Shown one piece after another: positions 1-15,580 of a DNA stretch of 34,850 nucleotides; positions within the stretch are counted from its first letter, which is position 1; each line of letters starts with the position of its first letter. The position numbers were made by a program, and so were the translations under genes. The notes beneath the pieces were generated by a model that ran no database searches, was not told the DNA's origin, and saw only the letters and a program-made list of their open reading frames with translations. Origin of the DNA: Photorhabdus heterorhabditis (lineage in GTDB: Bacteria; Pseudomonadota; Gammaproteobacteria; Enterobacterales; Enterobacteriaceae); the NCBI RefSeq assembly GCF_018448905.1, contig NZ_RCWA01000043.1, positions 1 through 34,850 on the forward strand. The letters run 5' to 3'.

Positions 1-486
1 AACGACTTCTGGTCGAACATCAATACTGACCCGATTTTTAATTTTGCCTCTTTTTTCATAGCGACCATAGCGTTTACGATAGGGTTTTCTGGCAATTCGC
101 AGATGTTGCCATAAATCACCCCCCTCTCTTTTATCTTGATAAATCAGCCTATAAATTGTCTCATGATGCAAAAATATCCCTTTATGCCGCTTCAAATAAT
201 CAACCACCTGTTCAGGACTCAAATCTTGCCAAATTAACCGTTTTATCCATTTTTTGACTTCCGGCGTTATTTTTACGGCTTTTTTAGCAAAATGACGACG
301 AGCTAATCCCTTCAAATGAGCCTGTTCAGGACAATAGATTTGAACTTCTTGATTTCTCTTCAATTCTCTGCTGATGGTCGACGGGCTTCGCTTAAGTGAC
401 TCAGCAATGAAGCGCTGTGAAAAACCGGCTTTTTTTAAACTGGAAATCGGGTATCTTTCTGTTTCGGTCAGTTGTATATAGGTCAT
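1..486 (-). CDS. IS30-family transposase, N-terminal part (cut by window edge)
   Basis: Reading frame open from the ATG at 486 to the left edge (162 codons, no stop), so the C-terminal DDE part lies outside the window. The translation starts MTYIQLTETERYPI and continues with a helix-turn-helix-like stretch (residues about 16-45, FSQRFIAESLKRSPSTISRE). It then has the IS30-type segment around residues 83-135 (PEVKKWI, LSPEQVV, ETIYRLIY, LRIARKPYRKRYG). This N-terminal HTH and linker is how IS30-family enzymes bind their terminal repeats. A run of six G residues near position 120 looked like a frameshift but reads through in frame, so the visible part is intact. Family assignment is by recognition of these motifs. 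Whether the element is complete cannot be judged here. Confidence 0.85.
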   Translation of the reverse strand, partial: MTYIQLTETERYPISSLKKAGFSQRFIAESLKRSPSTISRELKRNQEVQIYCPEQAHLKGLARRHFAKKAVKITPEVKKWIKRLIWQDLSPEQVVDYLKRHKGIFLHHETIYRLIYQDKREGGDLWQHLRIARKPYRKRYGRYEKRGKIKNRVSIDVRPEVV

Positions 487-547: not shown

Positions 548-571
548 TTGCACTTATTAGTCGAATCCGCC
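548..571. repeat. Probable terminal inverted repeat of the IS30-family element
   Basis: About 60 bp upstream of the transposase start lies TTGCACTTATTAGTCGAATC followed by CGCC. It resembles the ends of IS30-family elements (TTGCACTT...GAATCCGCC). It would mark the 5' boundary of the insertion, beyond which the sequence becomes AT-rich phage debris. The partner repeat is outside the window, so the call rests on similarity alone. Confidence 0.5.
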
Positions 572-573
572 TT

Positions 574-942
574 TCTTTTAAACTAAATATAAAATCTAAT
601 TTTGAAAAAAATTTTATTATGTCAATTCCCAAACCACTAAATATCGCAGTCTGCCGTATGATCAGAAACAGAAAACTTATAATTCTCTAAAGTGATTACA
701 TTTGTTAGTGATAGTAATGTATAAATATCCATAACAGAGATTCACAATGATATGTTTTTGATTTTTCTTTGCTCATTTATTGCTCTAATCATGTTCGTAA
801 TTTACTCATAGTTAATTCATTTCTTGCTAAATCTTCATTTTGGTTATTTATTGACACGTAAATCGACCCGATTTTTATCGTATCCGGCTTCGTTTAATGC
901 TTTAAAGCGCTGCCCTGGCAAGAATTGCGGTGAGTTAATCGG
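574..942. other. AT-rich stretch without a clear gene
   Basis: Between the IS30 end and the fibre crossover site I see no convincing gene. On the - strand a 32-codon frame (939 to the stop at 844-846) reads PINSPQFLPGQRFKALNEAG and ends RVDLRVNK. It has coding-like composition but no start, so it may be the C-terminal end of a lost phage gene. I do not recognise it, and it does not look like a serine invertase. Confidence 0.4.
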
Positions 943-968
943 TTACAGAAAACATTGGTTTAGTGGAA
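943..968 (+). other. Putative DNA-invertase crossover site (distal copy)
   Basis: A 26-bp sequence, half-sites TTACAGAAAACA and GGTTTAGTGGAA around a central TT. It matches the reverse complement of the site at 4862-4887 at 23 of 26 positions, with the same central dinucleotide. The family consensus for Hin/Gin/Cin sites has AAACC-NN-GGTTT at its centre. Here the outer half-site is degenerate (AAACA), so the site may be weakened or dead. The reading frame across it is the same as in the fibre gene (AAC ATT GGT TTA GTG GAA). Confidence 0.7.
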
Positions 969-1466
969 ACGATGAATTTGGCGAAAAGTGCGGTGCCGAG
1001 TAGCCGGAAAATTAATGGCAAGGCGTTGAATGGGGATGTCAGTTTAAGTGCCGGGGATGTTGGGGCATATCCAAAAGGAGAATCGGATGAACGATATCAA
1101 CCACATGGCAACTATCAACCTGTGGGGAACTATGCGGTTAGGGGGGAATGCTATACCAGAGGGGAGAGTGAAAATCGATATCAAAAAAAAGTCTCTTCAC
1201 TGGCTCCACGAGTGGTATGGGAAGGATTTATTGGTAATGGTGGTTCTGTCAATCTGAATGAAGATATCAAAGGTAAATTTTTATTAGTTTCAGGCACGGT
1301 GGCAAGAGATCGACATTCCTTGATATTTATACCTAGTGACGGATTTCCAATAGAATTTACTTATTATGAGTCATCAATTACTGTCATAAGAACCAGTAAT
1401 AATGGTAGGACTGTATCAATAATCAGCTTAAATGGTGGTCTTAGTCGTATTGTAGCATTGGAGTGA
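963..1466 (+). CDS. Silent alternative tail-fibre C-terminal module (inverted, promoterless)
   Basis: A 167-codon frame with a GTG as its first possible start and no convincing ribosome site. Its first residues, VETMNLAKSA, are the same as residues about 227-236 of the intact fibre gene on the other strand, and the DNA identity begins inside the crossover site. After that it diverges: KINGKALNGDVSLSAGDVGA, then two SDERYQ/SENRYQ repeats typical of phage fibre shafts, then a tip domain (about residues 80-167) unlike the one now in use. In frame upstream there is a stop at about 935, so it cannot be expressed alone. It reads as the stored second fibre end of an invertible cassette, comparable to Mu Sv'. 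A plain deletion remnant is the alternative. Confidence 0.75.
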   Translation: METMNLAKSAVPSSRKINGKALNGDVSLSAGDVGAYPKGESDERYQPHGNYQPVGNYAVRGECYTRGESENRYQKKVSSLAPRVVWEGFIGNGGSVNLNEDIKGKFLLVSGTVARDRHSLIFIPSDGFPIEFTYYESSITVIRTSNNGRTVSIISLNGGLSRIVALE

Positions 1467-1475
1467 TCGTAGCAT

Positions 1476-1640
1476 TTAATCAAAATCAACAGGGTTATTT
1501 TTTATGACCCTTGCAGGAACACCAACAGCGGTTGAATCGGATGGAATACCACCGATAACAACCGCTCCAGCGCCGATTTTAACGTTATTGCCAATTGTAA
1601 CTAATAACGGAAAAAGTAAACCGATTGAATTATCGCCCTC
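1476..1640 (-). pseudogene. Hexapeptide-repeat acetyltransferase, C-terminal fragment
   Basis: On the - strand, ending with the stop at 1476-1478, the translation shows left-handed beta-helix repeats: VTIGNNVKIGAGAVVIGG, then IPSDSTAVGVPARVIKNN. This is the typical C-terminus of serine O-acetyltransferase-like or sugar O-acetyltransferase enzymes. Upstream codons (PVFFEGDNSIG) are still compatible with the family but the frame then breaks, and no N-terminal half is present. It faces the alternative fibre module tail to tail, ten bases apart. The substrate cannot be told. As a carbohydrate-modifying enzyme beside a glycosyltransferase it may once have been surface-modification cargo. Confidence 0.7.
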
Positions 1641-1736
1641 GAAAAACACGGGGGGAAAACACCGAATGAATTATTTAAGGGAATACGAACATGTTTACTT
1701 CCAGATTAACGATAGTGGGCTAATTAAATGGTAATT

Positions 1737-2134
1737 TGTATTAAAAATAGGAATAGGATAACATTAGAATCTGGCGAACCAGACCTCAGCCAGATAAGGA
1801 CGTAAATGAAAGTGGTCATATCAAAAGAATTCTATAAAACACGGCAAAAAAAGAGAGAATATGGCAAATACATAAACTATTTTAAAACGATAGCTCAAAG
1901 CTGTATGAACTAAAAGTCAAAAAATTGGGAGTACAATAACGGGTAATAATTTGATTAGATAGGTTTTTGCAATTTTTATAAACCAACAAAATACTAAGTC
2001 GTGGTAAAAAGCAGTCTAACCCTCAAAAAAAATAGGAAACTAAGCGTTAATTTTTATCTGGCGAAATTCTCCAATTAGTAATATACTTGTATCCATTCGC
2101 TATGTAACTTAGAATAGTCTACTATCTTAGTAAA
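1737..2134. other. AT-rich intergenic stretch, nothing recognised
   Basis: No frame of useful length, no tRNA-like fold and no clear insertion-sequence end found between the acetyltransferase fragment and the small membrane ORF at 2135. Confidence 0.4.
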
Positions 2135-2392
2135 GTGGAATATTGTAACTTAATGAATAACCGTCAACTACTAAACTATCAATTACGCAAAAATGCAATA
2201 AGAATGCATGGTGTAGTAAACAAAGCATTGATAGGGGATGGGATATTGCAAGCAATATCCCATCCCTCCAGGTTGTCTATATCCCCTACCCAAACTAAAA
2301 GCGTGAGTGTAGGAGCATGGGTTGTAATTGTTGGGTTAATAACCATAATTATCCTCTTAATGTTCGTTATAAAACACTGGAAGACACTATGA
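2135..2392 (+). CDS. Small predicted single-pass membrane protein
   Basis: An 85-codon frame beginning GTG at 2135; the ATG at 2153 (MNNRQLLNYQ) is also possible and would give 79 residues. The N-terminal half is polar. The C-terminal 30 residues (AWVVIVGLITIIILLMFVIK) form one strong transmembrane helix followed by HWKTL. Its stop overlaps the next start as ATGA, the usual sign of translational coupling to the glycosyltransferase. The coding region is crossed by a perfect 15-bp inverted repeat. I do not recognise a family. It may be a real accessory partner or an open remnant, and the overlap is the main argument for a real gene. Confidence 0.45.
   Translation: MEYCNLMNNRQLLNYQLRKNAIRMHGVVNKALIGDGILQAISHPSRLSISPTQTKSVSVGAWVVIVGLITIIILLMFVIKHWKTL
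2235..2266. repeat. Perfect 15-bp inverted repeat (hairpin)
   Basis: GGGATGGGATATTGC, two bases AA, then its exact complement GCAATATCCCATCCC. It is followed by TCCAGG, not a T-run, so it does not look like a simple terminator. It lies inside the small membrane ORF, upstream of the glycosyltransferase start. Confidence 0.8.
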
Positions 2393-3177
2393 AAAACTTT
2401 ATAATTAGTTTACTGAATAACAATGAAAAAAGAAGAAAACATATAACTGAACAGTTTGAAAGGAATAATATAGAATTTGAATTTTTTGATGCTATTGATA
2501 AGAGCAGAATCAATATTGCAAATGAATTAGGAATAACTTTTGATAACCCAAATTTATCAATGGGAGAAAAAGGATGTTTTTTAAGTCATATTACTTTGTG
2601 GAAGAAAATTATTGACGAGAACATTCCTGTAGCTGGTATTTTTGAGGATGATATATATCTATCCAAGGAGTCAGAATTATATTTAACTGATTATAGTTGG
2701 GTAGATAACAACATTGATATTATAAAAATTGAACGAGCAGATGAGAAAGTAAGAACCTCTGTTTTTCCAGTGAAAAAACTTAAAAAAAATGAGAATATTT
2801 TTAGATTAAAAAACGAACATTTAGGTGCTGGTGGATACATTATTACAAATAAAGGAGCTAATTTTCTATTTAATAAAATAACTAGCACTCCATTAAGAGA
2901 ACCAGTTGATTGTGAAATATTTGATAATTTTATTTTAGATAAAAATTACATTGCCTGTCAGTTAATACCAGCACTATGTATGCAGGATTTTACTTTAAAT
3001 AAGAGTCATAATAATTTCCCGAGTTCTTTAGAAAATGAAAGAGTCCATAGAATTATCACTCCTAAAGAAAATTACAACAGTAAACTGTTACGTGAAATAC
3101 ATCGAGTTAAAAATCAGCTAATTGATTTTATTTTTAATAAACGAATAGAAAGAAAACTCCCCTTTAATAAGGATTAA
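2389..3177 (+). CDS. Glycosyltransferase family 25 (LPS-type)
   Basis: A 262-residue protein from ATG 2389. This start is chosen because GGAAG lies seven bases upstream and because the family begins MKNFIISL. The longer frame from 2317 adds residues with no family resemblance. Visible family features: N-terminal FIISLxxxxxRR (residues 4-16), EKGCFLSHITLWKKI (60-74), the metal/sugar-nucleotide motif FEDDIYL (85-91), and GAGGYIITNKGA further on. Family 25 enzymes such as the Lex2B/LgtB type transfer hexoses onto lipooligosaccharide in the cytoplasm. The composition is more AT-rich than the flanking tail genes, which suggests later arrival. It sits inside the proposed invertible segment, between fibre-assembly gene and alternative fibre end, so it may be phage cargo altering surface sugars. 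The acceptor is unknown. Confidence 0.85.
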   Translation: MKNFIISLLNNNEKRRKHITEQFERNNIEFEFFDAIDKSRINIANELGITFDNPNLSMGEKGCFLSHITLWKKIIDENIPVAGIFEDDIYLSKESELYLTDYSWVDNNIDIIKIERADEKVRTSVFPVKKLKKNENIFRLKNEHLGAGGYIITNKGANFLFNKITSTPLREPVDCEIFDNFILDKNYIACQLIPALCMQDFTLNKSHNNFPSSLENERVHRIITPKENYNSKLLREIHRVKNQLIDFIFNKRIERKLPFNKD

Positions 3178-3190
3178 TGAGCTATGATCC

Positions 3191-3415
3191 TGTAATTTAA
3201 ATTGTGTAATTGCCTGTTTTTGATATATTTATTCGGAAAACGGAGACAGGCAAATTATGGACGAAAATAAAATTAAGGCACTCGCAGCTAAATTGGCTAA
3301 GGACCTCAAAACTGAAGCCGATCTTAATCAGTTTTCCCGTATTCTCACTAGCTCGGTGATCGTCTGGACGGTCATTTATAATCAGATGGCAATTACACAG
3401 AATAATGTACAGACT
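3191..3415 (+). mobile_element. Miniature IS256-family element (internal deletion derivative)
   Basis: Inverted ends surround about 225 bp: GTGTAATTGCC at 3204-3214 and its exact complement at 3388-3398, with weaker pairing outward from TGTA at 3191 and TACA near 3413. Inside, the first 30 or so codons of a mutator-type transposase remain, directly followed by the right end. So transposase coding was deleted but both ends survive, as in a MITE. Exact outer boundaries and a target duplication could not be fixed by eye. Confidence 0.6.
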
Positions 3416-3454
3416 CTATCCCGGGATTTCTCCAATAACGGCAAGTTCTACTGA
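3257..3454 (+). pseudogene. IS256-family transposase N-terminal fragment
   Basis: The frame begins MDENKIKALAAKLAKDLKTE and continues ADLNQFSRILT, the characteristic N-terminus of IS256/mutator transposases (usual length about 400 residues). After residue 31 it leaves the family and reads through the element's right end and out into flanking DNA (ending NNGKFY). No catalytic DDE residues remain. A ribosome site (GGAGAC) precedes the ATG, inherited from the parent element, so a 65-residue chimeric peptide could still be made, but no function is expected. Confidence 0.75.
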
Positions 3455-3530
3455 CGTTATTATTTTCTTTAACATGAGCAAATATTTTAAGCTTTCGCTA
3501 ACTTCCTAATTCTTCTTTCTTGTTCATCTT

Positions 3531-3569
3531 GACCTCAACTAATATCTGTTAAAACTATCAGTTGAGGTC
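3531..3569. terminator. 10-bp inverted repeat, possible terminator
   Basis: GACCTCAACT and AGTTGAGGTC are perfect complements 19 bases apart, with further partial pairing inside the loop. There is no T-run on either side, so intrinsic termination is doubtful. The repeat sits beyond the 3' end of the tail operon (- strand) and could mark its end or be a relic. Confidence 0.35.
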
Positions 3570-3716
3570 TAGAAATTCACAAATAAGTGAGCGTATATAT
3601 AAACTCAATATCACTACCAATTTAAAATTCAAAGATTAAATGTTTGTATTTTTCATATAACTCACTAAAGTTAACTTCATCAATTATGGTAAAATTCATC
3701 TGCTGTTAGTGGGAGA

Positions 3717-4136
3717 TTATGGTTTTTCAGGCCAGTTAATGTCTGGTGCTAATGTAACATCGATACGGCTCAGTGATATTTGGTATTTTTTCCAAGCTAT
3801 TAACTGCGCTTTTTCCTCATCATTTGTCATATTTAGATCAACAGCATCTTGTAATGGTGCAATTTGATTTGTTGCTTCAGCTATCAATTGCTGTTTTCGA
3901 GATTTAGCCTGTTGCTGCAATTCTTCTTTTGTGGGCGTAGGAATGTCCGCCCATTCGGGTAAACCATTTTTACCCGCTATACGATATTTACCCTCTGGAG
4001 GAATACTGCCAGCAAACTCAATGAAGATAACTTCATCGACTTCCACCGCATCGTTTGGAAATGAACCGGCATTGATATAATCCTGTTTCCATTCGAACGG
4101 ATAAAATGCATTAGTTGTTGCACTGTAATAATACAT
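3717..4136 (-). CDS. Tail fibre assembly chaperone (Tfa family)
   Basis: A 139-residue protein starting two bases after the fibre stop. The N-terminal half has the Tfa signature: YYYSATTNAFYPFEW at the start, then EVIFIEFAGSIPPEGKYRIA and GLPEWADIPTPTKEEL. The C-terminal half is a helical region with repeated lysine and glutamine (QQQAKSRKQQLIAEA) ending in LDVNWP-like residues (APDINWPEKP). Tfa proteins help fibres trimerise and in Mu-type phages may stay on the fibre tip. Because they match the fibre's variable end, the gene being inside the proposed invertible segment fits Mu gene U. Last gene of the tail operon. Confidence 0.85.
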   Translation of the reverse strand: MYYYSATTNAFYPFEWKQDYINAGSFPNDAVEVDEVIFIEFAGSIPPEGKYRIAGKNGLPEWADIPTPTKEELQQQAKSRKQQLIAEATNQIAPLQDAVDLNMTNDEEKAQLIAWKKYQISLSRIDVTLAPDINWPEKP

Positions 4137-4138
4137 AA

Positions 4139-5545
4139 TTAATACCCCACAGCCAGATAATAAAACGATAGTGCACTCTGATTACCCGTTAGTGTAAATC
4201 CTGTTCTGCTTCTATTAGTAGTGCCCATAGATTGATATCCTATATTATCTGATAACACGATCCCGAAAACAGCATTTGGAAATGAGATTGGAAAATTAAA
4301 ATTCAGTGATTGCCCAGCATACCAAAGGTGGCTCGCCCACTGATAAATCATCCCGGTATCTCCACATCTCCACCAACCATTTGTAGATTTTAAGGCAGTA
4401 TTTTTGCTGCCATATCGGGAATCAGACTCAGGTTTAGTATATGACTGCCCCATAGGAGCATAGTTCCCGGCTGGCTGGTAACTGCCCTTGAGTTGAAATC
4501 GCCTATTGCACTCACCTGTGGTATATGCGCCGAGTTCTCCTGGGGATGGCTTATTGATTGAACTATATACCCGAATACCGGGTGCTTCATATACCCCCTT
4601 ACCGGAAATATATCCGGTTGCATCCACATTTCCGTTTACAACACCGCCAGATTTTGGATATGCCCCCACTTCCTCAGCAGAAGGCTTATTATTCGGACTA
4701 TAAACACGCAAGCCGGACTCATAAATGTATCTTTTCGCCCAGATGTCTTGACTAGATACAACATCTTTGCCTTCTCCGGATTTTACATATCCAGTCGCAT
4801 CCACATTCCCGTTTACAATCCCACCTGCTTTTGGAAACGCACTTTTCGCCAGATTCATCGTTTCCACTAAACCAAGGTTTTTTATAAACTCACTTTTATT
4901 AGGGATATCTGCACCGTTTTGGTTTTTTGCCAGTCTATTGTTGGCATTATTATTTGCGTTTGTTGCATTGTTGTTTGCATTTGTCGCGTTAGTGTTAGCT
5001 CCATCGATTGATTTATTTAACTCATTCCATACGGTATGCATTAATGATGAGGTCGGTACCGTATTCCCCGCATCAGCAATTTGATTACTTAACCGCACTA
5101 TCCCCTTTTCAGTCAATGATGCATCAGGAACGCCACTTAATTTTCCCTCCGCGATTCTTCTAACGTCATGCACAGCTTTAGGCGTTGCCGCCTGATCTTC
5201 TCTGTCAGAATTTGTCGCGCTGTTGAGCTGCGATATGCCTTTCTGCGTAAGCGAAGCAGCCGGGATTTCCGTGGTAATTTTTTGTTTTAATGCCAAGTCT
5301 AACTGTTGGGTGAGTTTCTCTAAATCACCATCATCAATAACATCCTCCCCCGTTTTTTCTGCAATATATTTCCCAATTACCGCAGCAATGATTGAGGATT
5401 GCCGCCAAACTTTATTTAATCGCTCACTTCTGGCAATGCCCGATTTAAATCCCTCTTCAATAAAATCAGAATTTTCATATTCTTCTTGTGATAAAGTATT
5501 CGCGTTTTCACCCGTCGCAAATGCCTTAAAATCATTTTTCGCCAT
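4139..5545 (-). CDS. Tail fibre protein (host recognition)
   Basis: A 468-residue fibre. Residues 1-90 form the baseplate-attachment end. Residues about 95-170 hold two fibre repeats (SLTQKGISQLN...ATPKAVHDV and SLTEKGIVRLS...VPTSSLMHTV). An Asn/Ala-rich linker follows (TNATNANNNATNANNNANN). The crossover sequence falls at residue about 223, so 1-224 would be constant and 225-468 variable. The variable part holds two related segments (FPKAGGIVNGNVDATGY and YPKSGGVVNGNVDATGY), shaft repeats (RRFQLKGSYQP, SDSRYG), and a C-terminal gp53-like tip starting NGWWRCGDTGMIYQW. Such tips bind surface sugars or proteins of the target cell. The next gene encodes its Tfa chaperone. Confidence 0.88.
   Translation of the reverse strand: MAKNDFKAFATGENANTLSQEEYENSDFIEEGFKSGIARSERLNKVWRQSSIIAAVIGKYIAEKTGEDVIDDGDLEKLTQQLDLALKQKITTEIPAASLTQKGISQLNSATNSDREDQAATPKAVHDVRRIAEGKLSGVPDASLTEKGIVRLSNQIADAGNTVPTSSLMHTVWNELNKSIDGANTNATNANNNATNANNNANNRLAKNQNGADIPNKSEFIKNLGLVETMNLAKSAFPKAGGIVNGNVDATGYVKSGEGKDVVSSQDIWAKRYIYESGLRVYSPNNKPSAEEVGAYPKSGGVVNGNVDATGYISGKGVYEAPGIRVYSSINKPSPGELGAYTTGECNRRFQLKGSYQPAGNYAPMGQSYTKPESDSRYGSKNTALKSTNGWWRCGDTGMIYQWASHLWYAGQSLNFNFPISFPNAVFGIVLSDNIGYQSMGTTNRSRTGFTLTGNQSALSFYYLAVGY
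4862..4887 (-). other. Putative Gin/Hin-type DNA-invertase crossover site inside the fibre gene
   Basis: On the + strand the 26 bp are half-site TTCCACTAAACC, centre AA, half-site GGTTTTTTATAA. The known gix/hix/cix family shares TTCC or TTCT, then AAACC-NN-GGTTT, then ATAA at the same spacing. Both half-sites fit. Position within a fibre gene, at the border between constant and variable parts, is the same as in phage Mu gene S. Partner site at 943-968, inverted. Confidence 0.78.
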
Positions 5546-5547
5546 TT

Positions 5548-6120
5548 CTAACCCTCCACTATATGGTAATTAACCGTTATTCCCATAGGTTTAATCGAGA
5601 GATAACCCTGATGGATGATTTCCTTAGTGATGCTACTAATTACTTTACCTCTTACCGTTACGGTAAATGACATATCCAAGTTATCTTCAAAAGATATAGA
5701 TATGTTGTTATGTGAGTGAATAAAACTCAGGATGTTATTAAGTGATTCAGCCGTTCCATCCCAGTTGTTTGCGCCTATTTTAGCTTTGATTACTATTCGA
5801 TAATTATCATCATCCAACTTGACATAACTTTTATCACTATCAAACCGCCCTTTCCATTTGCCACTATCAAATCCCAATTCAGGAATATCAAAGGAGAAGT
5901 AATAGTATTCAATCGGGGTTTGAATCATTCGATTTCTTTCTACCCATTCTCCAATGATATCAAGCTGTTTGCCCTCCGCTTTATCAAGGTCAAAACTGCT
6001 AATCAGTAAATCAGCGGTGGACGCATTCCAGTTAAAAATATCGGTAACAGCTTCAAGCATTCTGACATATCGTTCACCTTCCATATGGTAAGACGGAATC
6101 AGCTTCATATATTTATTCAT
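5548..6120 (-). CDS. DUF2612 baseplate protein (tail-fibre adaptor)
   Basis: A 190-residue protein. The N-terminus carries the helical segment typical of DUF2612 proteins (YVRMLEAVTDIFNWNASTAD, then DKAEGKQLDIIGEWVERNR at about 47-65). A middle part with SDKSYVKLDDDNYRIVIKAKIGANNWDGT (about 97-125) is followed by a beta-rich end. In contractile tails it lies at the outer baseplate and links wedge to fibre, like gpI/gp48-type proteins. Its start overlaps the preceding J gene by four bases and the fibre gene follows after two bases. Family call by recognition of these motifs. Confidence 0.82.
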   Translation of the reverse strand: MNKYMKLIPSYHMEGERYVRMLEAVTDIFNWNASTADLLISSFDLDKAEGKQLDIIGEWVERNRMIQTPIEYYYFSFDIPELGFDSGKWKGRFDSDKSYVKLDDDNYRIVIKAKIGANNWDGTAESLNNILSFIHSHNNISISFEDNLDMSFTVTVRGKVISSITKEIIHQGYLSIKPMGITVNYHIVEG

Positions 6121-7310
6121 TCGAGCACCGTCACTATTTTAATATTTTCAGGTGAACAGGTCGGCGCTTCATTAAAGGCAATATTGATGTTCGCTACTCC
6201 TGTTGTTGATGCTGATTTACCTGCCACCACAGATAATACTTCATATGTCTGACTGCCGTTTTTATTACATAAGTTTGCCGGCACAAATAAACGAGTAACA
6301 TATATCCCATCACCAATATAAAGTGAGTTGATATAGTTAGATACCTCTGTCCGAATATTATTTCCAATATCCGATGTGTATCCAATAAAAGGTTTAATCT
6401 GAATTTCAATATAAATTGGTACCAGCGTTGGACGATAGAAGTTAATCGTTTTTTTATTGCCAGTGTTATCCGTGACAATTTCAGAGGTGGTGCCAAATGT
6501 CGGTATGCCCGGCGTTTTCTTTATCAAAATAGTTTGAGCAATTTCTTTCGAGTCTCCTCCATCAATGACAATCGCAATACTGTGCGCAGGTATACCGTTC
6601 TTATCGGTTTCATCCGTGTCGTTGTCATATCCCTGATAACGTGAAACACCATGCAGATTAGCAATAGCGCCAATAAGTCCATCCATAATGGTTTTCGAAG
6701 GTAATGCAACTGAAACTGCTTGCCGGATTCTCAGTTCTGCATCGGTTTCAACTCCCCGACCCAGTGTAGCAGCAACAGGGTTTGTCACTGTTTGCCAGCC
6801 CAATGTTGGTGTAGCAATCTGATTAATCGTGTGAGGCAGTGCGCCAATAGCGCCTGTTTTTTGACACACAGCCGTTACAATAGCCTGCCCGTGCATGTCT
6901 ATAGTGACTTCATCCGGTAGTGACCAGGTGTTTCCTATATCATCCCGAATAGAAGCATTGCGAATAACAGTACCCGCCCGGCCAGTTATTAAAACATCTA
7001 CAGTCGAGTTACTGGGGCTTTTTCTGGTAATACCGTTGATTTTGACATTACGAGAAAGCCCCTCACCCACCGCGGTTGCTGGGCTGAATGAGTTATAAGA
7101 AGCAATGATTGCGTTATTACAACCATGAACCACATAAGCAATCAACGATAGAAAAACACCGTCTTTGCTGTCAGATTCAATGTAAATATCTTCTCCGTAG
7201 ATATCTCTAAATATTGTCTTCCAGCCATTTAAAATGGTTTGATAATCAGGGGCATTGATCCCGTTTTTATTAATGTCAGGTAACATTGTGTTGATAATAT
7301 TTTCATACAT
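6117..7310 (-). CDS. Baseplate assembly protein J-like (gp47 family)
   Basis: A 397-residue protein, usual length for the family. Recognisable parts: the N-terminal DYQTILNGWKTIFRDIYGED with SDSKDGVFLSLIAYVVHGCNNAI (about 22-72), the conserved SPATAVGEGLSRNVKINGITR (75-95), GTVIRNASIRDDIGNTW, and the later GRGVETDAELRIRQAVSVALPS with the glycine-rich IANLHGVSRYQGYDNDTDETD. These proteins form baseplate wedges together with gp25 and are essential for sheath contraction. The start overlaps the gp25-like gene by eight bases, so the two are probably translationally coupled. Confidence 0.9.
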   Translation of the reverse strand: MYENIINTMLPDINKNGINAPDYQTILNGWKTIFRDIYGEDIYIESDSKDGVFLSLIAYVVHGCNNAIIASYNSFSPATAVGEGLSRNVKINGITRKSPSNSTVDVLITGRAGTVIRNASIRDDIGNTWSLPDEVTIDMHGQAIVTAVCQKTGAIGALPHTINQIATPTLGWQTVTNPVAATLGRGVETDAELRIRQAVSVALPSKTIMDGLIGAIANLHGVSRYQGYDNDTDETDKNGIPAHSIAIVIDGGDSKEIAQTILIKKTPGIPTFGTTSEIVTDNTGNKKTINFYRPTLVPIYIEIQIKPFIGYTSDIGNNIRTEVSNYINSLYIGDGIYVTRLFVPANLCNKNGSQTYEVLSVVAGKSASTTGVANINIAFNEAPTCSPENIKIVTVLE

Positions 7311-7650
7311 CAGCCGTTACTCCTGTCTGTCCATAAATCGTGTCAATCGTGACTGTAATGGTGATTTTTCTTGTGTTGGGGTTTCTTTCACTGCGGTAGT
7401 GGATAATGTTTGATACACCAAGTGTTTGCAGTATTCTCTGTCTGATGACCAGGTCATAAAAACCCGATGTGCCTTTACCTAATACTTTGTCGTAATCAGT
7501 TCCCTCTTGGTTATCAAGAAACCATTCACCACTACGCAGCATCAAACGTGTTCTCACTGCCTGTGCAATCGCCTCCGGTGAATTGATAAGAAAACCCGCT
7601 TCACCACGACCAAATATATAGTCGTTGTCAATTTCTCTTCTGTATCTCAT
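7303..7650 (-). CDS. gp25-like baseplate wedge protein (W/gp25 family)
   Basis: A 115-residue protein with the gp25 fold features: IAQAVRTRLMLRSGEWFLDN in the middle and YDKVLGKGTSGFYDLVIRQ after it. It ends in a beta pair KITITVTIDTIYG. In contractile injection machines gp25 holds the base of the sheath to the wedge, and it is the most conserved baseplate protein. It overlaps both neighbours by a few bases in the operon. Confidence 0.88.
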   Translation of the reverse strand: MRYRREIDNDYIFGRGEAGFLINSPEAIAQAVRTRLMLRSGEWFLDNQEGTDYDKVLGKGTSGFYDLVIRQRILQTLGVSNIIHYRSERNPNTRKITITVTIDTIYGQTGVTADV

Positions 7651-8402
7651 TGGGGTTTCCCCGTGTTGCTTCCACCCGATTGCACACCGCTATGGACATG
7701 GTTTTTAAGGCTAATCCCCGCTGCTGTCACATCGTTGCTCACAGTAACTGGGCCTTGCATGGTTGCAGTACCACCACCAGCCCCCATTCCCTGCGATAAG
7801 TTGCCGTTAATAGTGACGTTGCCGTTCAGGATGATTTCAGGTGAGGTAATTTCGGTACCACCATTTGCAGTGGCAGTGAGTTTTGCCGGTGTGATAACCG
7901 TGATGTTATGGCTACCAGGATCAAGCTCGATATAAGCCGCACCATCATCACTCCTCAGCTGGACGCTACTTGTGCTAATGCCAGCTATTTTTTGTTGCTG
8001 TGATTGTGGGCCAATAAGCGCAAATCCATCGGATAGGTTGTGCTGCCGGGGATCTACCGGCTCTTGTACGCCACCCGATTGCCACCAGTAATCAATGCAA
8101 CGATCAGCAAACACGACCAGACATTCATCACCCGCTTTTACCGGAAATGTTAGCGTCACTCCACCACCCCTTGGGAATATAACGGGGACATCCACCAACA
8201 GCGGTAAGGATACTGATTCAAGATCCCCATCTTTTTTCCTGATTTTCCATCTGATAGCCGGTTGTGCTGTAACGGTTACCGCATCAGCATCAAATGATTG
8301 AATAATACAGGGCAGAGAGACATACAATCCGGCGCTAATCATTTCTTGCATAGAAAAAAAGACCGCTTCCGGTCTATTTAGTCGTTCATCAGTATTTATC
8401 AT
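7647..8402 (-). CDS. Gp138-like baseplate spike protein
   Basis: A 251-residue protein. Residues about 25-130 form the Gp138-type OB-like N-terminal domain (LPCIIQSFDADAVTVTAQPA, LPLLVDVPVIFPRGGGVTLT, then VKAGDECLVVFADRCIDYWW). The C-terminal half is a repetitive beta-helix (PEIILNGNVTINGNLSQ) ending NHVHSGVQSGGSNTGKPQ. The HVH near the tip is like the His-x-His motif that holds iron at the apex of membrane-piercing spikes. It would be the needle tip that first contacts the target envelope. Start overlaps the hub gene stop. Confidence 0.88.
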   Translation of the reverse strand: MINTDERLNRPEAVFFSMQEMISAGLYVSLPCIIQSFDADAVTVTAQPAIRWKIRKKDGDLESVSLPLLVDVPVIFPRGGGVTLTFPVKAGDECLVVFADRCIDYWWQSGGVQEPVDPRQHNLSDGFALIGPQSQQQKIAGISTSSVQLRSDDGAAYIELDPGSHNITVITPAKLTATANGGTEITSPEIILNGNVTINGNLSQGMGAGGGTATMQGPVTVSNDVTAAGISLKNHVHSGVQSGGSNTGKPQ

Positions 8403-9334
8403 CAGTTGTCTGCCTTACCTTTGTTGCCAGTTGATTGATTCAGCAGGGTGTGATCGCTCTTAGCGATACACATCATTTTCATGTACCACTCGGTTTCGCG
8501 GGTATCGCCGGAATAATTTATATTGAAGACAATGTAATCACCGTCAGAATCCAATGCTGCCGGTTGTTCTTTTGAATCCTTATGTACAGTAGAGGGATCA
8601 ACCGGTGTGATTGAGCGGTTATCCAATCTAATTAATGTACCTGGACGGATGTTCGGATTAATTAAGCACGTAACGTTAATACCTGAGCCGATAGTCTGTT
8701 CAGGCATACCAATCAGACCCGTTTTTAATGTGAGTACAACGGCTTCAGTTAAGTATTTATTTTTAGGCACAATATGTAACTGGTTATCTTCATAGCGCCA
8801 GTTAGCATCACATTGTTTTGCCAAGTCAGAGACTGCATTACGGTGCATACCAAAAAGCACTTTTCCTCTGGGTGAGGCTGACATTCTTAATTCAGGGCGC
8901 AAGCCAGCCGTAATGCCATATTTGGCAATATCACGCATCAGTAAGTGATCTAAATCTGCTTGTGAATATCCAGCCGCAATGGTGGTATTCACTGTCGCGT
9001 AATTGTGTGGTTCATCTCCGTCTGCCGCCTGAATAACAACACAAGTATCCGTTGGGCTATCTCTCTTTACATGGGTGTACTGGATTTGACCTGAAAATAT
9101 TTGTCCTGAGTTCCCTTTGTAGCCCGCCACAAATTTAATCGTTTTAAACTCATTTTTGCGTAATTTATTACTGGTTGCGTCATTAAGGTTATATATTGTA
9201 AAAATGCCTGTAGCAGGATAGGAAGATTCCGTTATTTTAATATCAAATATGATTTTCAGGTTTGATAAATCTACTTTTTCGCCCTTTTCGTCGAAAACGA
9301 TAAGGTGACATTCTCTTATCCATTGTTTTGACAT
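8402..9334 (-). CDS. Baseplate hub protein (gp27/gpD-like)
   Basis: A 310-residue protein, start with AGGTGAATT before the ATG. The N-terminal half (LKIIFDIKITESSYPATGIF, IYNLNDATSNKL, GYKGNSGQIFSGQIQYTHV) has the barrel pattern of hub proteins that sit on the spike. A middle section follows with AKQCDANWRYEDNQLHIVPK, seen in gp27/late-control-D-like hubs. The end (GDTRETEWYMKMMCIAKSDH) is conserved in phages with a Gp138 spike. The position directly before the spike gene supports the hub role. Exact family name is inferred. Confidence 0.8.
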   Translation of the reverse strand: MSKQWIRECHLIVFDEKGEKVDLSNLKIIFDIKITESSYPATGIFTIYNLNDATSNKLRKNEFKTIKFVAGYKGNSGQIFSGQIQYTHVKRDSPTDTCVVIQAADGDEPHNYATVNTTIAAGYSQADLDHLLMRDIAKYGITAGLRPELRMSASPRGKVLFGMHRNAVSDLAKQCDANWRYEDNQLHIVPKNKYLTEAVVLTLKTGLIGMPEQTIGSGINVTCLINPNIRPGTLIRLDNRSITPVDPSTVHKDSKEQPAALDSDGDYIVFNINYSGDTRETEWYMKMMCIAKSDHTLLNQSTGNKGKADN

Positions 9335-9356
9335 AATTCACCTAATTAACAGGAAC

Positions 9357-9378
9357 AAAAAAACCGCAATTAAGCGGG
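9357..9378 (-). terminator. Weak hairpin with T-run between plug and hub genes
   Basis: Read on the - strand: CCGC, six-base loop TTAATT, GCGG, then seven T residues. The stem is only four GC pairs. The 135-base gap here is the only sizeable gap in the tail operon, so it may attenuate transcription. Confidence 0.35.
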
Positions 9379-9469
9379 TATGCGTAACAAGTCATTGAAC
9401 ATTAAAGATTACAGGTTCACAAATAGCAAAATAAACAACCCCCTAAAATTCACGCTTATTTTCTTCATG

Positions 9470-9775
9470 TTAATTTGTTACAAAATATAATTTATCCTCT
9501 TTACCAAGATTATTCCTGAAAGGTTTTTCCTGGTTTATATCACCATAAAAAATTAATGAACCGTTAAAACCAAGATGACGATATTGTTCAAGCAAGTTAA
9601 TCCCAAATACTAGCGGTAAGCCAGTGACTATTGGCTCACTGTCCGGCGTCATGATATCCAGAATCCAACCCGCAATATCACGCCAAATTAAGCTCATTTT
9701 ATAGTTAACACCATCCAATTGAACATCGAATTGCTGGTTTATCGGTGATAAAGGAATTTCTACAATCCCAGCCAT
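9470..9775 (-). CDS. Baseplate plug protein (Pam3 gp18-like)
   Basis: A 101-residue protein whose start overlaps the Dit-like gene by 16 bases. The pattern MAGIVEIPLSPINQQFDVQL, VNYKMSLIWRDIAGWILDI, PLVFGINLLEQYRHLG is that of the small beta-rich protein known as a plug in the cyanophage Pam3 baseplate. It would close the central channel near the hub until contraction. Family call by recognition; length agrees with the family. Confidence 0.75.
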   Translation of the reverse strand: MAGIVEIPLSPINQQFDVQLDGVNYKMSLIWRDIAGWILDIMTPDSEPIVTGLPLVFGINLLEQYRHLGFNGSLIFYGDINQEKPFRNNLGKEDKLYFVTN

Positions 9776-10365
9776 TTTTTACCCCGCTCTATAATATAGT
9801 CAAGAATAACTCGTGGTAATGACGGCTTCACCGTGACTTTGGTTCCCACATTAATCACAGGTGCCGTATCTTCAGGATGTTTCATATTTTCAGCAGGCGC
9901 TGCTTGCTCCGTTGATGTTTCAACAATAATGATTTCACGCAGGTTTAAAATCACTGAGAGAACATTTTCACTGGTTTTATCCGTTGTGATTGTCATATCT
10001 TTAATTAACATATTTTTATATAAGCGTTTCCCGGTGACGACATCAAAAGGTTTATGGGATGCCCTAAGGTCGAGTAATTGTTGATACACCGCATGCGGAC
10101 TGGTTCCCAGGCTCAATCCGGTAGCAATATCAAATACTTTTGTAGTATCAATAACATCAAGTAGCGAACCGCCACCAGCAAAACCTAGCTCCATTCTCAC
10201 TTCTGATGGACTATCATAAGCATGATCACTGATTGTCACCCCCTGTTGGACTGGATGATCCGTGATATTGGATGTGTCCGTATGTGTTTCTGAAATAATG
10301 ACACTCGGTACAATGGCACCTATTTTTCTCGTTTGCTGAGAAAACATAACTGATAATATATCCAT
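9760..10365 (-). CDS. Dit-like tail/baseplate protein
   Basis: A 201-residue protein just after the tape measure, where distal tail proteins usually lie. Residues about 14-145 fit the Dit-like N-terminal domain: VPSVIISETHTDTSNITDHP, VTISDHAYDSPSEVRMELGF, VYQQLLDLRASHKPFDVVTG, MLIKDMTITTDKTSENVLSV. The C-terminal 55 residues are low in structure signals. It would form the ring between tube and hub. Overlaps the plug gene. Confidence 0.78.
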   Translation of the reverse strand: MDILSVMFSQQTRKIGAIVPSVIISETHTDTSNITDHPVQQGVTISDHAYDSPSEVRMELGFAGGGSLLDVIDTTKVFDIATGLSLGTSPHAVYQQLLDLRASHKPFDVVTGKRLYKNMLIKDMTITTDKTSENVLSVILNLREIIIVETSTEQAAPAENMKHPEDTAPVINVGTKVTVKPSLPRVILDYIIERGKKWLGL

Positions 10366-10367
10366 TG

Positions 10368-12212
10368 TTATCTCACTTGTGTTTGCATATTTCTAAGTAA
10401 CATACTGTGAGTGCGTTCTACCGTTTCTCCAGTAAGTCTTGCCGCTTCTCTGGGGGATTCAACGCCATTAATCTCAATATGGTAGTTTACTTCCCCAATC
10501 CCATTCATATTATTATTGCCAGCAGGAATCAGCGAACGCAGCATGAAATTGTGAGTCGCTCCCTGATGATTGATCATACTGTTGATATTCGTCATTGCAC
10601 CGCTGAGCATATGAGGGTCAATGGAAATGTTTTTCCAATAATTAGCAACATTATTTAGATGTTTGGTTAAGCCCAAAGGTTTATTCTCTGACGGTGGCAC
10701 GCCGAGAATCGCCGCCCTAATAAATTCTGGTGAATAGGGATTACCACCAATTTCGACTACCATCATGCTATCAATCAAATGTTGCATCACGTTAGGATCG
10801 GTTAAATCAAGGAACGCATCTTTAGAAACGCCCATCATTTTAGACACACTAGCAATGTATGCTTTAGTCTTATTACCGTCTTTTGATGGCGCCCATGTCG
10901 GGATAATACTGGCAATGGTTTGCAGCTTTTTTCCTGTAGTCTTGCCACTAAAATAACGCCTCAATTGATGAGCGGTGGCCTTTAATTCACTATATGCATC
11001 TGGAAACTTAGCAAATCTGTGCCCAGGGCTATCTTCACGGACTGCCCCTCTTTGATTCGCAAAGTTCATATTTAGCGGGTTGTTATTCCTGGCCCCTCTG
11101 GAAGACATGAGTTTCTTTATTCTTGTTTCTGTCAGCTCACTGTTCAAAATATCCATCGACTGATTAACTGCATTTAAACTCTGATGAGTATCAGGCTGCT
11201 TAGCAATACCAGCTTTATGATGGTCTTTATTGAGTGGCTTATTCTTGCGTTTCTTTTTCGCTTTACTTGATTGGCCTGATACTTTTCTGGGAATATCGGC
11301 AATTTTTTGGCTGTGATCTTTATCAATTATAAGTTCACCGCCATCAAGCTGTTTTTGATATTGGGGAATACCAGCAACTTTCTGGTTGTGATCTTTATCA
11401 ATGATAGGCTTACTACCATCAAGTTGTTTCTGGTATTTTTCATAATTATCTTTGCTAAAAAACGGTGTCAAGTCAGAAGCCACATACAGCCCATGCGTTG
11501 ATATCCAACTATTAAATTGATCAAACGTTAACAGGGGTTTCTTATTTGCTTCACGTTCTTTTCGCTGCCGCTGTATGGTTTCACCCACCGTTTCGTGATT
11601 TTTCCTTGCTTCTTCTTGTAATGCATTTAATCGACTATTAAGGTCGAATAATATTCCCAGCGTAATTTTTCTTCCTGTGAATTTCCATAATTCATTCAGT
11701 GTTTTCAATAAGCCGTTCGCTGAAGCTTCCCCTTTGTTTAACCATTTAACTAATCCCTCAATCGCATTAAATATGTCATCACTATCAAGTGTGTTGGTGT
11801 TTTGATTGGCACATCCCATCGTGGCTTTTAATAGCGGCTCACTCATTGATGTTATCAAAGAGGCAGTATTAACATGGCCGCCATTGGCATGGGACAAAAT
11901 ATCAATCTTCGGTAGAAATCTTTCTACACTTCCACTTCCTACCGCCTGACTAGCTCCCTCATCAATAGGTTTAATTTTTTCAATCGTTGAACCTGTTTTC
12001 TGTAACTGTCCGTAGAGTTTGTCCAGCCCGTCAGTGACTTGGGTGATAAAATTAACCACCGCTGAGGTGGCGTTTTCAATTTCCGCCCTCATTTTGAGAA
12101 CATTGGCTGTTACTTCGGTGATAACAGCGATAAATTTACGCTGTCCCACCTCGTCAACATCAAACTTAAGTGATACCAGGAAATCTCTCATTGTTTCAGC
12201 GTCATTACTCAT
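10368..12212 (-). CDS. Tail tape measure protein with muramidase-like domain
   Basis: A 614-residue protein. Residues 1-210 are helical and tape-measure-like. Around residues 258-310 two 26-residue repeats occur (YQKQLDG...IIDKDHNQKVAGIP and YQKQLDG...IIDKDHSQKIADIP). A lysine-rich linker follows (SGQSSKAKKKRKNKPLNKDH). Residues about 375-505 resemble the virion-associated peptidoglycan lytic domain of the structural protein P5 type: RGARNNNPLNMNF, HRFAKFPDAYSELKA, LRRYFSGKT, LQTIASIIPTWAPSKDGNKT. Such domains open peptidoglycan during injection. The short length implies a short tail. The start lies within the end of the frameshift product, as ATGAGTAA. The ribosome site is GAGAGGTGG. Confidence 0.82.
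   Translation of the reverse strand: MSNDAETMRDFLVSLKFDVDEVGQRKFIAVITEVTANVLKMRAEIENATSAVVNFITQVTDGLDKLYGQLQKTGSTIEKIKPIDEGASQAVGSGSVERFLPKIDILSHANGGHVNTASLITSMSEPLLKATMGCANQNTNTLDSDDIFNAIEGLVKWLNKGEASANGLLKTLNELWKFTGRKITLGILFDLNSRLNALQEEARKNHETVGETIQRQRKEREANKKPLLTFDQFNSWISTHGLYVASDLTPFFSKDNYEKYQKQLDGSKPIIDKDHNQKVAGIPQYQKQLDGGELIIDKDHSQKIADIPRKVSGQSSKAKKKRKNKPLNKDHHKAGIAKQPDTHQSLNAVNQSMDILNSELTETRIKKLMSSRGARNNNPLNMNFANQRGAVREDSPGHRFAKFPDAYSELKATAHQLRRYFSGKTTGKKLQTIASIIPTWAPSKDGNKTKAYIASVSKMMGVSKDAFLDLTDPNVMQHLIDSMMVVEIGGNPYSPEFIRAAILGVPPSENKPLGLTKHLNNVANYWKNISIDPHMLSGAMTNINSMINHQGATHNFMLRSLIPAGNNNMNGIGEVNYHIEINGVESPREAARLTGETVERTHSMLLRNMQTQVR
11283..11438 (-). repeat. Two direct 78-bp repeats in the tape measure gene
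   Basis: Two adjacent 26-codon units, seen for example as GTGATCTTTATCAAT at about 11309 and again about 78 bases on, with the same protein unit in both (YQKQLDG...IIDKDH.QK). In-frame duplication would lengthen the tape by one unit. Confidence 0.75.
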
Positions 12213-12815
12213 TTCGCCACCTCTCTATCATGGCCTCATTTTCCGATTTAACATCAAGGGCATCATTCATCAATGCAATATCAGCCAGGTCAAGAGCGCC
12301 GTCTTTTAATGATTCATAACAGCACATGCCCGCAATGACCGGGCGTAACAGATAATCACGCCCTTTCGGGAGAGTTTCAAAATTTAAGCTGGGTTGTCCT
12401 GGGATTACACTTCGCTCTCTGATAGGGCGGGAAAAAAATTTCCCAATGAATCTCGAATAATAAAACCTACAATTTTCAGTAATTCTAAGCCATTGATGTC
12501 ATCGAACATCAATACTTGACCATCAGGTTCATAAATCTTGCTCCATATGCCACTCTGTTCACGAGAAACCACTGATAAGCAAATATCATTAATTTCATAC
12601 CGGTTGGATTTTCCCAGCGCAGTAATGAATTCAATCAGATGAGGAATCAATTCTTCAAAGCTGGTCGTGCCATCATCATTTCTATCTGCGACGATCTTTT
12701 TCATCAGTGGCCCAAGTGCAGGAATAGCTGGAGACAAGGCCACTGCCAGATCCTGTTGCTGAAAAGCGTTCAGTTTGCCACTGCGATATTTTTTACCGTC
12801 GATTTCAAATTCCAT
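12205..12815 (-). CDS. Tail assembly chaperone, -1 frameshift fusion (E-E' / G-GT type)
   Basis: If ribosomes slip back one base at the heptamer ending at 12435, the short chaperone's first 127 residues continue for 76 more codons to the stop at 12205-12207. This gives about 203 residues. The extension is open throughout, has no start codon of its own before its middle, and looks coding: FETLPKGRDYLLRPVIAG, CCYESLKDGALDLADIALMN, ALDVKSENEAMIERWRNE. Most tailed phages make this pair of products just upstream of the tape measure, and both bind it during tail assembly. The extension's last codons overlap the tape measure start. Confidence 0.82.
12405..12815 (-). CDS. Tail assembly chaperone, short form
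   Basis: A 136-residue product (start ATG 12815, chosen because GGGGGGAGATT lies directly before it; the frame is open to a TTG at 12830). It reads MEFEIDGKKYRSGKLNAFQQ, then SPAIPALGPLMKKIVADRND, SFEELIPHLIEFITALGKSN, and ends NFFPALSESEV. The position between tube and tape measure, the size, and the acidic helical character fit the phage chaperone that coats the tape measure before the tube forms. Related to P2 E / lambda G by position and mechanism rather than by clear sequence similarity. Confidence 0.82.
   Translation of the reverse strand: MEFEIDGKKYRSGKLNAFQQQDLAVALSPAIPALGPLMKKIVADRNDDGTTSFEELIPHLIEFITALGKSNRYEINDICLSVVSREQSGIWSKIYEPDGQVLMFDDINGLELLKIVGFIIRDSLGNFFPALSESEV
12432..12441 (-). 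promoter_or_regulatory. Slippery sequence for programmed -1 frameshift
   Basis: On the coding strand AAATTTTTTT, read in the zero frame as A AAT TTT TTT CCC. A AAT TTT is a standard X XXY YYZ heptamer and T TTT TTT overlaps it. It lies 25 bases before the stop of the short form. The -1 frame is open from here to 12205. Confidence 0.8.
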
Positions 12816-12930
12816 AATCTCCCCCCTCAAATACTTAGCCCAAAACCGTCCAAGCTACCGAAGCATAAGCCTGATTATGAACATGCAGACAAATGCCCCG
12901 GCTAGTTTCAGCGTTTGTAAAGTAAACTGG

Positions 12931-13371
12931 TTAGAATGTGCCTAACATGATGTCGATTTTTCCGCAATCAAACACCCAGGCAACGGTATTACCTGCTTTG
13001 GAATTCTGTAAATCCGGTTGCTTCTGAAAGGCAACAGAACGTGCAACAACAACGTCGTTACTTTCCTTGTTTCGAATAACAATCACGTTATTACCCCATG
13101 CTGCCGATGAAAGCGATTGTGCACTAAGCATAGCGTTCAGTTTTGCGTTTACCGGACTGGTCTTAAGCAAATTAACTGTAATAGTTCCAGATTTGGTAGC
13201 ATGCAATGAATGCATGACTTCACCATCTGCTCCGGTGGTCATGGTGTTTTTGCTTTCTGACATCGTAACTACAATTCCCTCGTCAGAGAGAGCCGCGCCG
13301 TTACCAAGATCGAAAGAACCTCCTACCCCTGTAATAGAAGCAGAGACATCAAGAAAAGAATACGTAGCCAT
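12931..13371 (-). CDS. Tail tube protein (DUF3277)
   Basis: A 146-residue protein from ATG 13371, with AAGGA six bases upstream; the frame extends two codons further to a TTG. It shows the DUF3277 pattern: MATYSFLDVSASITGVGGSF, GIVVTMSESKNTMTTGADGE, MHSLHATKSGTITVNLLKTS, WGNNVIVIRNKESNDVVVAR, DCGKIDIMLGTF. DUF3277 proteins are tube subunits of contractile tails whose sheath is DUF3383. The gene follows the sheath gene after nine bases. Confidence 0.88.
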   Translation of the reverse strand: MATYSFLDVSASITGVGGSFDLGNGAALSDEGIVVTMSESKNTMTTGADGEVMHSLHATKSGTITVNLLKTSPVNAKLNAMLSAQSLSSAAWGNNVIVIRNKESNDVVVARSVAFQKQPDLQNSKAGNTVAWVFDCGKIDIMLGTF

Positions 13372-13380
13372 TTTCAATCC

Positions 13381-14847: not shown

Positions 14848-14850
14848 AAT

Positions 14851-15390: not shown

Positions 15391-15554
15391 CAAAAATACC
15401 TCCATCAAACAGCAATAACTCGCAATGTAGCTGAATACACCAAGCCCTCTATGAAGGCTTAGTCTCCAGCACCAGGTTATGATTGATTTAATAGGGATAC
15501 CGACCGCAAAGAAGGTAAAAAAATATGCGTAAGTCATTCGCGGCGGCAAATACG

Positions 15555-15580
15555 AAAAAGGCCGCAACAAAGTGCAGCCC
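15555..15580 (-). terminator. Rho-independent terminator upstream of the tail operon
   Basis: On the - strand: GGCTGCA, loop CTTTGT, TGCGGCC (one G-T pair), then five T residues. It lies 165 bases before the neck gene start, in the same direction, so it would stop read-through from the Q side unless transcription is antiterminated. Confidence 0.65.

What the first reader, a model, noticed from the sequence alone, without database searches (positions are those of the whole stretch)
943..4887. Fibre gene carries a Gin/Hin-type crossover site, with an inverted partner at a silent alternative fibre end
A 26-bp site inside the fibre gene (4862-4887) matches the core layout of invertase sites, AAACC-NN-GGTTT with TTCC and ATAA outer ends. 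An inverted copy with 23/26 identity and the same central dinucleotide lies at 943-968. It sits precisely where a promoterless second fibre C-terminus begins in the matching frame. Inversion of the 3.9-kb segment would join residues 1-224 of the fibre to a different shaft and tip in frame. This is the Mu G-segment architecture, here around a cassette with no visible capsid genes. The fibre-assembly gene also lies inside the segment, as in Mu.
Basis: partly seen in the sequence, partly recalled or inferred. Interest (0 to 1): 0.87.

Follow-up and report, generated by a model that had tools for sequence, protein, structure and literature searches.

The report
Four-site invertible tailocin fibre cluster
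A Photorhabdus bacterium appears to swap the tips of a phage-tail-like weapon by flipping DNA at invertase sites, with the enzyme encoded at another tail locus and only broken stubs of its gene left beside the silent sites.

Summary
The window is a whole contig of a Photorhabdus genome: a tail-only cluster (KPP10/Pam3-like) whose fibre gene carries a Gin/Hin-type site (4862-4887) with an inverted partner (943-968). The exact site pattern occurs 71 times in 13 Photorhabdus genomes, against 0 for the reversed-pattern control. In three relatives on one contig the cluster has four sites (L+, M1-, M2+, R-); here L and M1 lie on contig C7, M2 and R in the window. Inversion between strains is supported: in one strain a 2.4-kb block, 98.9% identical to another strain's R-side block, sits inverted at the L site with the junction inside the 26-bp site; the reciprocal junction was not found. 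A strain 99.3% identical over 10.7 kb has a different fibre end.

No invertase was found in 12 clusters fetched. This genome's only Gin-like invertase sits in a P2-like tail locus. Window 764-942 is a broken 5' stub of such a gene keeping two Fis-like motifs 49 bp apart, as in the intact gene. I infer retained enhancers served in trans: a new variant of a known kind.

The parts
943..968 (+). crossover site M2, at the start of the silent fibre end; core deviates at one base
4862..4887 (-). crossover site R, inside the fibre gene (codons about 220-228)
943..4887 (.). segment between M2 and R, predicted to be invertible
   Evidence: inverted site pair; exchange at equivalent sites in relatives
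764..942 (-). broken 5' stub of a Gin-like invertase gene: start codon lost, stop after 30 codons
   Evidence: profile hits; reading in frame
793..807 (.). distal Fis-like motif (7 of 7 consensus positions), centre about 156 bp from the site centre
   Evidence: consensus recalled
842..856 (.). proximal Fis-like motif (6 of 7), centre about 107 bp from the site centre; 98th percentile of conservation among leaders
963..1466 (+). silent alternative fibre end, in the frame of the fibre; reading frame open back through the site
2317..3177 (+). family 25 glycosyltransferase inside the segment
   Evidence: Pfam E 7e-40
3717..4136 (-). fibre assembly chaperone (Caudo_TAP)
   Evidence: Pfam E 1.2e-47
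4139..5545 (-). expressed-configuration tail fibre gene; constant N-terminus 5545 to about 4875, variable end beyond
5548..15570 (-). contractile-tail gene cluster: baseplate, hub, tape measure, structural, sheath, terminator
1..486 (-). transposase fragment (helix-turn-helix; IS30-like by recall) cut by the contig end; it breaks the cluster assembly

Best explanation
This is the right half of a four-site, Gin/Hin-type DNA inversion cluster that changes the receptor-binding end of a tail-only, contractile phage-tail-like particle (tailocin type) of Photorhabdus. The fibre N-terminus sits at site R; alternative ends sit between L and M1 and between M2 and R. Inversion R x M2 would join the end at 963 to the N-terminus; R x L another; L x M1 followed by L x R the fourth. 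The cluster has no invertase of its own. The likely enzyme is the Gin-like invertase of the P2-like (photorhabdicin-type) locus on contig C26, acting in trans on sites with the same centre. Broken 5' stubs of such a gene beside L, M1 and M2 probably persist because they keep a Fis-bound recombinational enhancer in cis. Shown: the site pairs, the congruent four-site layout in relatives, end exchange that breaks at the site, one L/R recombinant junction between strains, the gin stubs, a single Gin-like invertase in this genome's assembly. Inferred: present-day activity in this strain, trans action, enhancer function of the stubs, effect on killing range.
For: 71 exact sites against 0 control in 13 genomes. 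Four sites L(+) M1(-) M2(+) R(-) in G007, G008, G010, and the same order split over C7 and the window here, with synteny of the left border in ten relatives. L/R recombinant junction: left of L 149/150, right of it 295/300 to G007's R end and 103/300 to its L end; block 2389 bp at 98.9%. Window against its closest strain: 99.26% over 10,721 bp, then a different end. 67 strain pairs: identity 0.93-0.95 upstream, falling to about 0.3 beyond the site. Own Gin-like invertase: PDB DNA-invertase chain E 7e-83; its Pfam match 72 bp from an exact site in 11 of 13 genomes. Stub. At the P2-like locus of G003 the gin-side site is joined to two different ends, the second junction exact to the site centre.
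Against: No two orientation isomers with the same ends were seen for this cluster in one strain; own assembly shows one configuration. In the L/R case the reciprocal junction was not found: that strain's R end matches neither G007's L end (99/300) nor its R end (149/300). The end of the closest strain (L153) is not among the four ends known here. M2 deviates at a core base, and two of four listed M1 sites too. The Fis-like pair is modest: for the window 3% of shuffles do as well, for the leaders 1-28%; distal motif only at the 72nd percentile of conservation. G012 has no invertase beside a site, yet keeps an intact R site. The sequence between C7 and C43 is not assembled.
Confidence: 0.78

Rival explanations
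1. A relic: the cluster once inverted with its own invertase, which decayed to the stubs; today ends are exchanged only by homologous recombination and horizontal transfer, as proposed for carotovoricin loci of Pectobacterium, about half of which lack ein.
For: No intact invertase in any of 12 clusters fetched; deviating M sites; ends gained and lost between strains; precedent in PMC13195805 (passages read).
Against: The 2.4-kb block at the opposite end of the cluster, inverted, with its junction inside the site and 295/300 identity right after it is what site-specific inversion gives; the stub's proximal Fis-like motif is the best conserved part beside the site; the site is intact at R in 11 of 12 clusters (in G006 it reads N).
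Confidence: 0.16
2. Another invertase serves the cluster: one hidden in the assembly gap, or a prophage or plasmid invertase.
For: The gap between C7 and C43 is unassembled; other genomes hold several Resolvase-family genes; G012 has an intact R site without an invertase beside a site.
Against: In this assembly only two Resolvase-family genes were found; in G007, G008 and G010, where the cluster is on one contig, none lies in it.
Confidence: 0.1
3. Only fibre-gene homology: the repeat is the coding motif KNLGL with no recombination.
For: The motif also occurs in fibres outside the clusters, and codons just upstream of the site are conserved too.
Against: Three fibres keep KNLGL with other codons (core 8 of 10: L024, L037, L090). 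Ends change at the site. Silent sites without a coding N-terminus keep the pattern.
Confidence: 0.02

Closest known systems
Min system of plasmid p15B (Sandmeier et al. 1990; title seen in the reference list of PMC5903667; content recalled; paper not held)
   Same: Several overlapping invertible segments with Gin-type sites that give one fibre N-terminus a choice of ends.
   Different: Recalled: Min has its invertase in the cluster. Here none was found in the cluster, and stubs of the gene lie beside silent sites; tail-only chromosomal locus.
Carotovoricin Er, ein-mediated fibre inversion (Nguyen et al. 2001; cited in PMC13195805 and PMC13280938, passages read; paper itself not held)
   Same: Tail-like bacteriocin whose fibre end is changed by DNA inversion.
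   Different: Recalled as one segment with the invertase ein in the locus; here four sites, another tail type, and the enzyme elsewhere.
Xenorhabdicin loci of Xenorhabdus (PMC13280938, passages read)
   Same: Fibre region inverted between sister strains, glycosyltransferases in it, no invertase in the locus but invertase genes elsewhere in all 97 genomes.
   Different: P2-like tail; the paper suggests multi-site recombinases in general. Here the sites, a candidate enzyme with the same sites, and gene stubs with Fis-like motifs are identified.
Phage Mu G segment / Gin, and Hin of Salmonella (PMC3798978, passages read; Mu recalled)
   Same: 26-bp sites and a Gin-like enzyme; the hin enhancer is 65 bp with a Fis site at each end, about 100 bp from a hix site, which fits motifs at 107 and 156 bp.
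   Different: One segment with an adjacent invertase; here four sites and the invertase elsewhere.

Membership tests
Gin/Hin/Cin/Min-type invertible fibre cluster | 26-bp sites of the family pattern in inverted orientation inside the fibre gene and at a silent end | tested here: met
   M2 with one core deviation
Gin/Hin/Cin/Min-type invertible fibre cluster | alternative end in frame behind the second site | tested here: met
Gin/Hin/Cin/Min-type invertible fibre cluster | invertase gene adjacent to the segment | tested here: not met
   stub only; nearest Gin-like gene on contig C26
Gin/Hin/Cin/Min-type invertible fibre cluster | Fis-bound enhancer near a site | tested here: inconclusive
   two Fis-like motifs at the spacing of the intact gene; binding not testable
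Gin/Hin/Cin/Min-type invertible fibre cluster | both orientations found | tested here: inconclusive
   one recombinant junction between strains in the orthologous cluster, without its reciprocal; not within one strain
Tailocin (tail-only particle) | contractile tail genes without capsid, portal or terminase genes | tested here: met
   20 of the 47 listed ORFs scanned with Pfam, 10 with PHROGs: no such match; two proteins fall in the PHROG category head and packaging as 'virion structural protein', called baseplate plug and KPP10 structural ORF10 by Pfam
Tailocin (tail-only particle) | particle made, released and killing relatives | not testable with these tools
   needs an experiment

The most novel reading that the evidence does not exclude
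A split inversion system: one Gin-like invertase, encoded in a P2-like tailocin locus, serves in trans a second, unrelated tailocin whose silent sites keep invertase-gene stubs solely as cis-acting Fis enhancers, so that the fibre repertoires of two weapons are switched by one enzyme.
Probability: 0.42. Interest if true: 0.76.

Novelty: new variant of a known kind. Interest (0 to 1): 0.64.

Why it matters
Invertible fibres are known, but usually described with the invertase alongside. Here the enzyme, the crossover sites and the probable enhancer have come apart: sites and stubs in one tail locus, enzyme in another. That would explain how loci without an invertase still invert, a point left open for xenorhabdicin (PMC13280938, passages), and it makes a clear prediction: deleting one gene should freeze the fibres of two different tailocins. 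It would also be a pseudogene fragment conserved as DNA rather than as protein, and it gives a genus-wide natural series of fibre ends on one constant tail.

Tried and rejected
Chance: the loose pattern in the window alone is not significant, so I used the exact pattern genus-wide with its built-in control. Protein-only conservation: rejected. The codon-invariance test at 11 R sites is weak: the loci were found by the site itself, and several codons just upstream are invariant too (10 of 24 amino-acid-invariant upstream codons are nucleotide-invariant). Likewise the loci were picked by a pattern covering the first 19 bases of the R site, so identity there is by construction; only the contrast between upstream and downstream counts. 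The second Resolvase-family gene of the genome (C19) has no site hit with at most one mismatch on its contig; the nearest two-mismatch hit is about 5.3 kb away. Contigs ending about 107-118 bp past a site (C14 and C16 here; G004) were not taken as evidence of mixed orientation, since repeated end sequences explain them. Phage collection: 25 records with partial tail matches, none covering 80% of the query. No paper treating invertase stubs as enhancers appeared among the titles listed (12 of 116; 4 of 4; 15 of 579), and no invertible Photorhabdus fibre cluster of this tail type in the listings (10; 4; 7) or the passages; this covers only the held open-access library. One search was a script with a frame error, redone.
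Full report
1. What is there. The window is one whole contig (C43) of a 5.05-Mb genome in 226 contigs. Fibre relatives place it in Photorhabdus; the nearest named record in that search is P. australis DSM 17609. The fibre gene, its chaperone and a family 25 glycosyltransferase lie in or across the segment. Behind the fibre are baseplate, hub, tape measure, structural, DUF3383 sheath and terminator genes. No capsid, portal or terminase match appeared among the 20 of 47 listed ORFs that were scanned; two proteins fall in the PHROG category head and packaging. rcsD and rcsB genes follow. A DUF3383 sheath is found in 13 of 13 genus genomes and in 0 of 14 control genomes.

2. More than chance. Inside the window the loose pattern is not significant. 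The exact pattern TTN5AAACCN2GGTTTN5AA occurs 71 times in 13 Photorhabdus genomes, at least twice in each; the reversed-pattern control gives 0 in all 13.

3. A four-site cluster. In G007, G008 and G010 the cluster lies on one contig with sites in the order L(+), M1(-), M2(+), R(-); most M sites there carry a core deviation. Each pair L-M1 and M2-R encloses two convergent fibre ends, several with chaperones. In this genome L (170234) and M1 (176381) are on contig C7, and M2 (943) and R (4862) in the window. Behind the silent end at 963-1466 no chaperone gene was seen. C7 carries the left border: its 504-aa gene (77-85% identity) lies left of the leftmost silent site in ten relatives, in seven of them on the contig that also bears the tail cluster. 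Other relatives show fewer readable sites: G002, for example, has two. The cluster was fetched from 12 of 13 genomes; I did not fetch that of G003. An intact R site was found in 11 of 12; in G006 the place reads N. The P. australis record has a broken fibre gene at the R site.

4. Inversion. (a) Contig IMGVR 2895738071_000002 against G007: left of L 149/150 identical; right of the site 295/300 identical to G007's R end and 103/300 (background) to G007's L end. The block runs 2389 bp at 98.9%, inverted, up to the M2 site. The reciprocal junction was not found: the R end of that strain matches G007's L end at 99/300 and its R end at 149/300. (b) The strain closest to the window (L153, IMGVR 2654587594_000002) is 99.26% identical over 10,721 bp up to 37 bp past the site, then has a different end, one not among the four known in this genome. 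(c) Of 25 R-site loci entered, 67 pairs passed the length and upstream criteria (mean ungapped upstream identity above 0.9). Mean identity is 0.93-0.95 upstream, then 1.00 and 0.86 in the two half-sites (largely by construction, see Tried and rejected), then 0.71, 0.44, 0.38, 0.32 and 0.30. A few pairs share an end type (for example L071/L164). (e) At the P2-like locus, two contigs of G003 share a 6.39-kb segment at 99.94%. On one the gin-side site is followed by one end, on the other by another end whose second copy lies at an outer inverted site: that junction has 0 mismatches up to the site centre, then 300/300 with the gin side. In G008 two contigs join the segment to its flanks differently at the site, at 98.7-99.7% identity, which could also be a second copy of the locus.

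5. The enzyme. This genome has two Resolvase-family genes. One (C26, 190 aa) matches the best PDB DNA-invertase chain (4m6f, which I recall as Mu Gin) at E 7e-83. It lies in a P2-like tail locus (sheath, tube, tape measure and baseplate by reading the ORFs; not scanned with Pfam), which I take to be the photorhabdicin locus from recalled literature. Its Pfam match lies 72 bp from an exact site in 11 of 13 genomes; in G004 the contig ends there, and in G012 no such neighbour exists. No Resolvase hit falls in any of the 12 clusters fetched.

6. The stubs. About 180 bp outside M2 are shared by M1 and M2 of relatives. A profile of 14 such leaders, searched on 13 P2-like loci, gives 34 hits: the 5' end of the intact invertase gene in 13 of 13 loci (E 1.8e-16 to 3.2e-12) and 21 further stubs (E down to 3.2e-16, weakest 3.7e-5); the reversed control gives none. 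A model built without this genome finds window 942-765 at E 2.4e-43; stubs also lie beside L sites. In the invertase frame the window reads TIKIGSIYVSINNQNEDLARNELTMSKLRT and then a stop: the start codon is lost. The other leaders read alike, with stops. Conservation falls off about 190 bp from the site. Two Fis-like motifs 48-49 bp apart, about 107 and 156 bp from the site centre, are the best pair in 11 of 11 intact genes, in 14 of 14 P2-locus stubs and in 7 of 13 leaders; in 6 leaders a pair elsewhere scores best, but at the same two places all 13 leaders score 6 of 7 and 5 to 7 of 7. The pair is only moderately unusual: shuffles reach the score in 3% of cases for the window and in 1-28% for the leaders. 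The proximal motif is at the 98th percentile of conservation, the distal at the 72nd. Shared descent from one invertase gene explains the positions; selection for an enhancer is an inference. The hin enhancer is a 65-bp element with a Fis site at each end, about 100 bp from a hix site (PMC3798978, passages).

7. Cargo. Glycosyltransferases of families 25, 2 and 4, a methyltransferase and a sulfatase-family protein lie between the sites in different species (10 proteins chosen from the list). For xenorhabdicin such genes were proposed to give self-resistance (PMC13280938, passages); here that is only an analogy.

8. Verdict. As a mechanism it works like a Gin/Min-type inversion cluster; the defining feature tested and not met is the adjacent invertase. 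New variant of a known kind.

Noticed in passing
own genome C14:114063, C16:95424, C29:34818; also in G003, G004, G006, G008, G011: A second group of fibre-gene sites has the centre TC instead of TT, and G010 has a pair with TG; such groups should not recombine with the TT group.
   Followed up: partly
L082:10660-11130 (P. australis DSM 17609): The fibre gene is interrupted within the R site; foreign sequence and then the equivalent of window 571-835 follow.
   Followed up: partly
L171 against L077 at the R site: Two records identical over 3 kb upstream differ by one base in length within the site, shifting the frame of the fibre end in one; may be an assembly error.
   Followed up: no
L022:13812-14433 (own C7): A small gene pair that looks like a RelE/HigB-type toxin with an HTH antitoxin lies just inside M1, judged by eye from the ORF list.
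   Followed up: no
own genome C7:123393-132933 and C29:28880-34750: Arrays of many fibre N-termini in a row, several per array.
   Followed up: no
window 1-95 and L153:12116-12210: The transposase at the window's left end is identical over 95 bp to one lying just behind the fibre end of the closest strain, so insertion elements help to break and reshape the cluster.
   Followed up: partly
L088:10660-10770 (P. khanii NC19): The assembly reads N exactly across the R site and its start of the fibre end.
   Followed up: no
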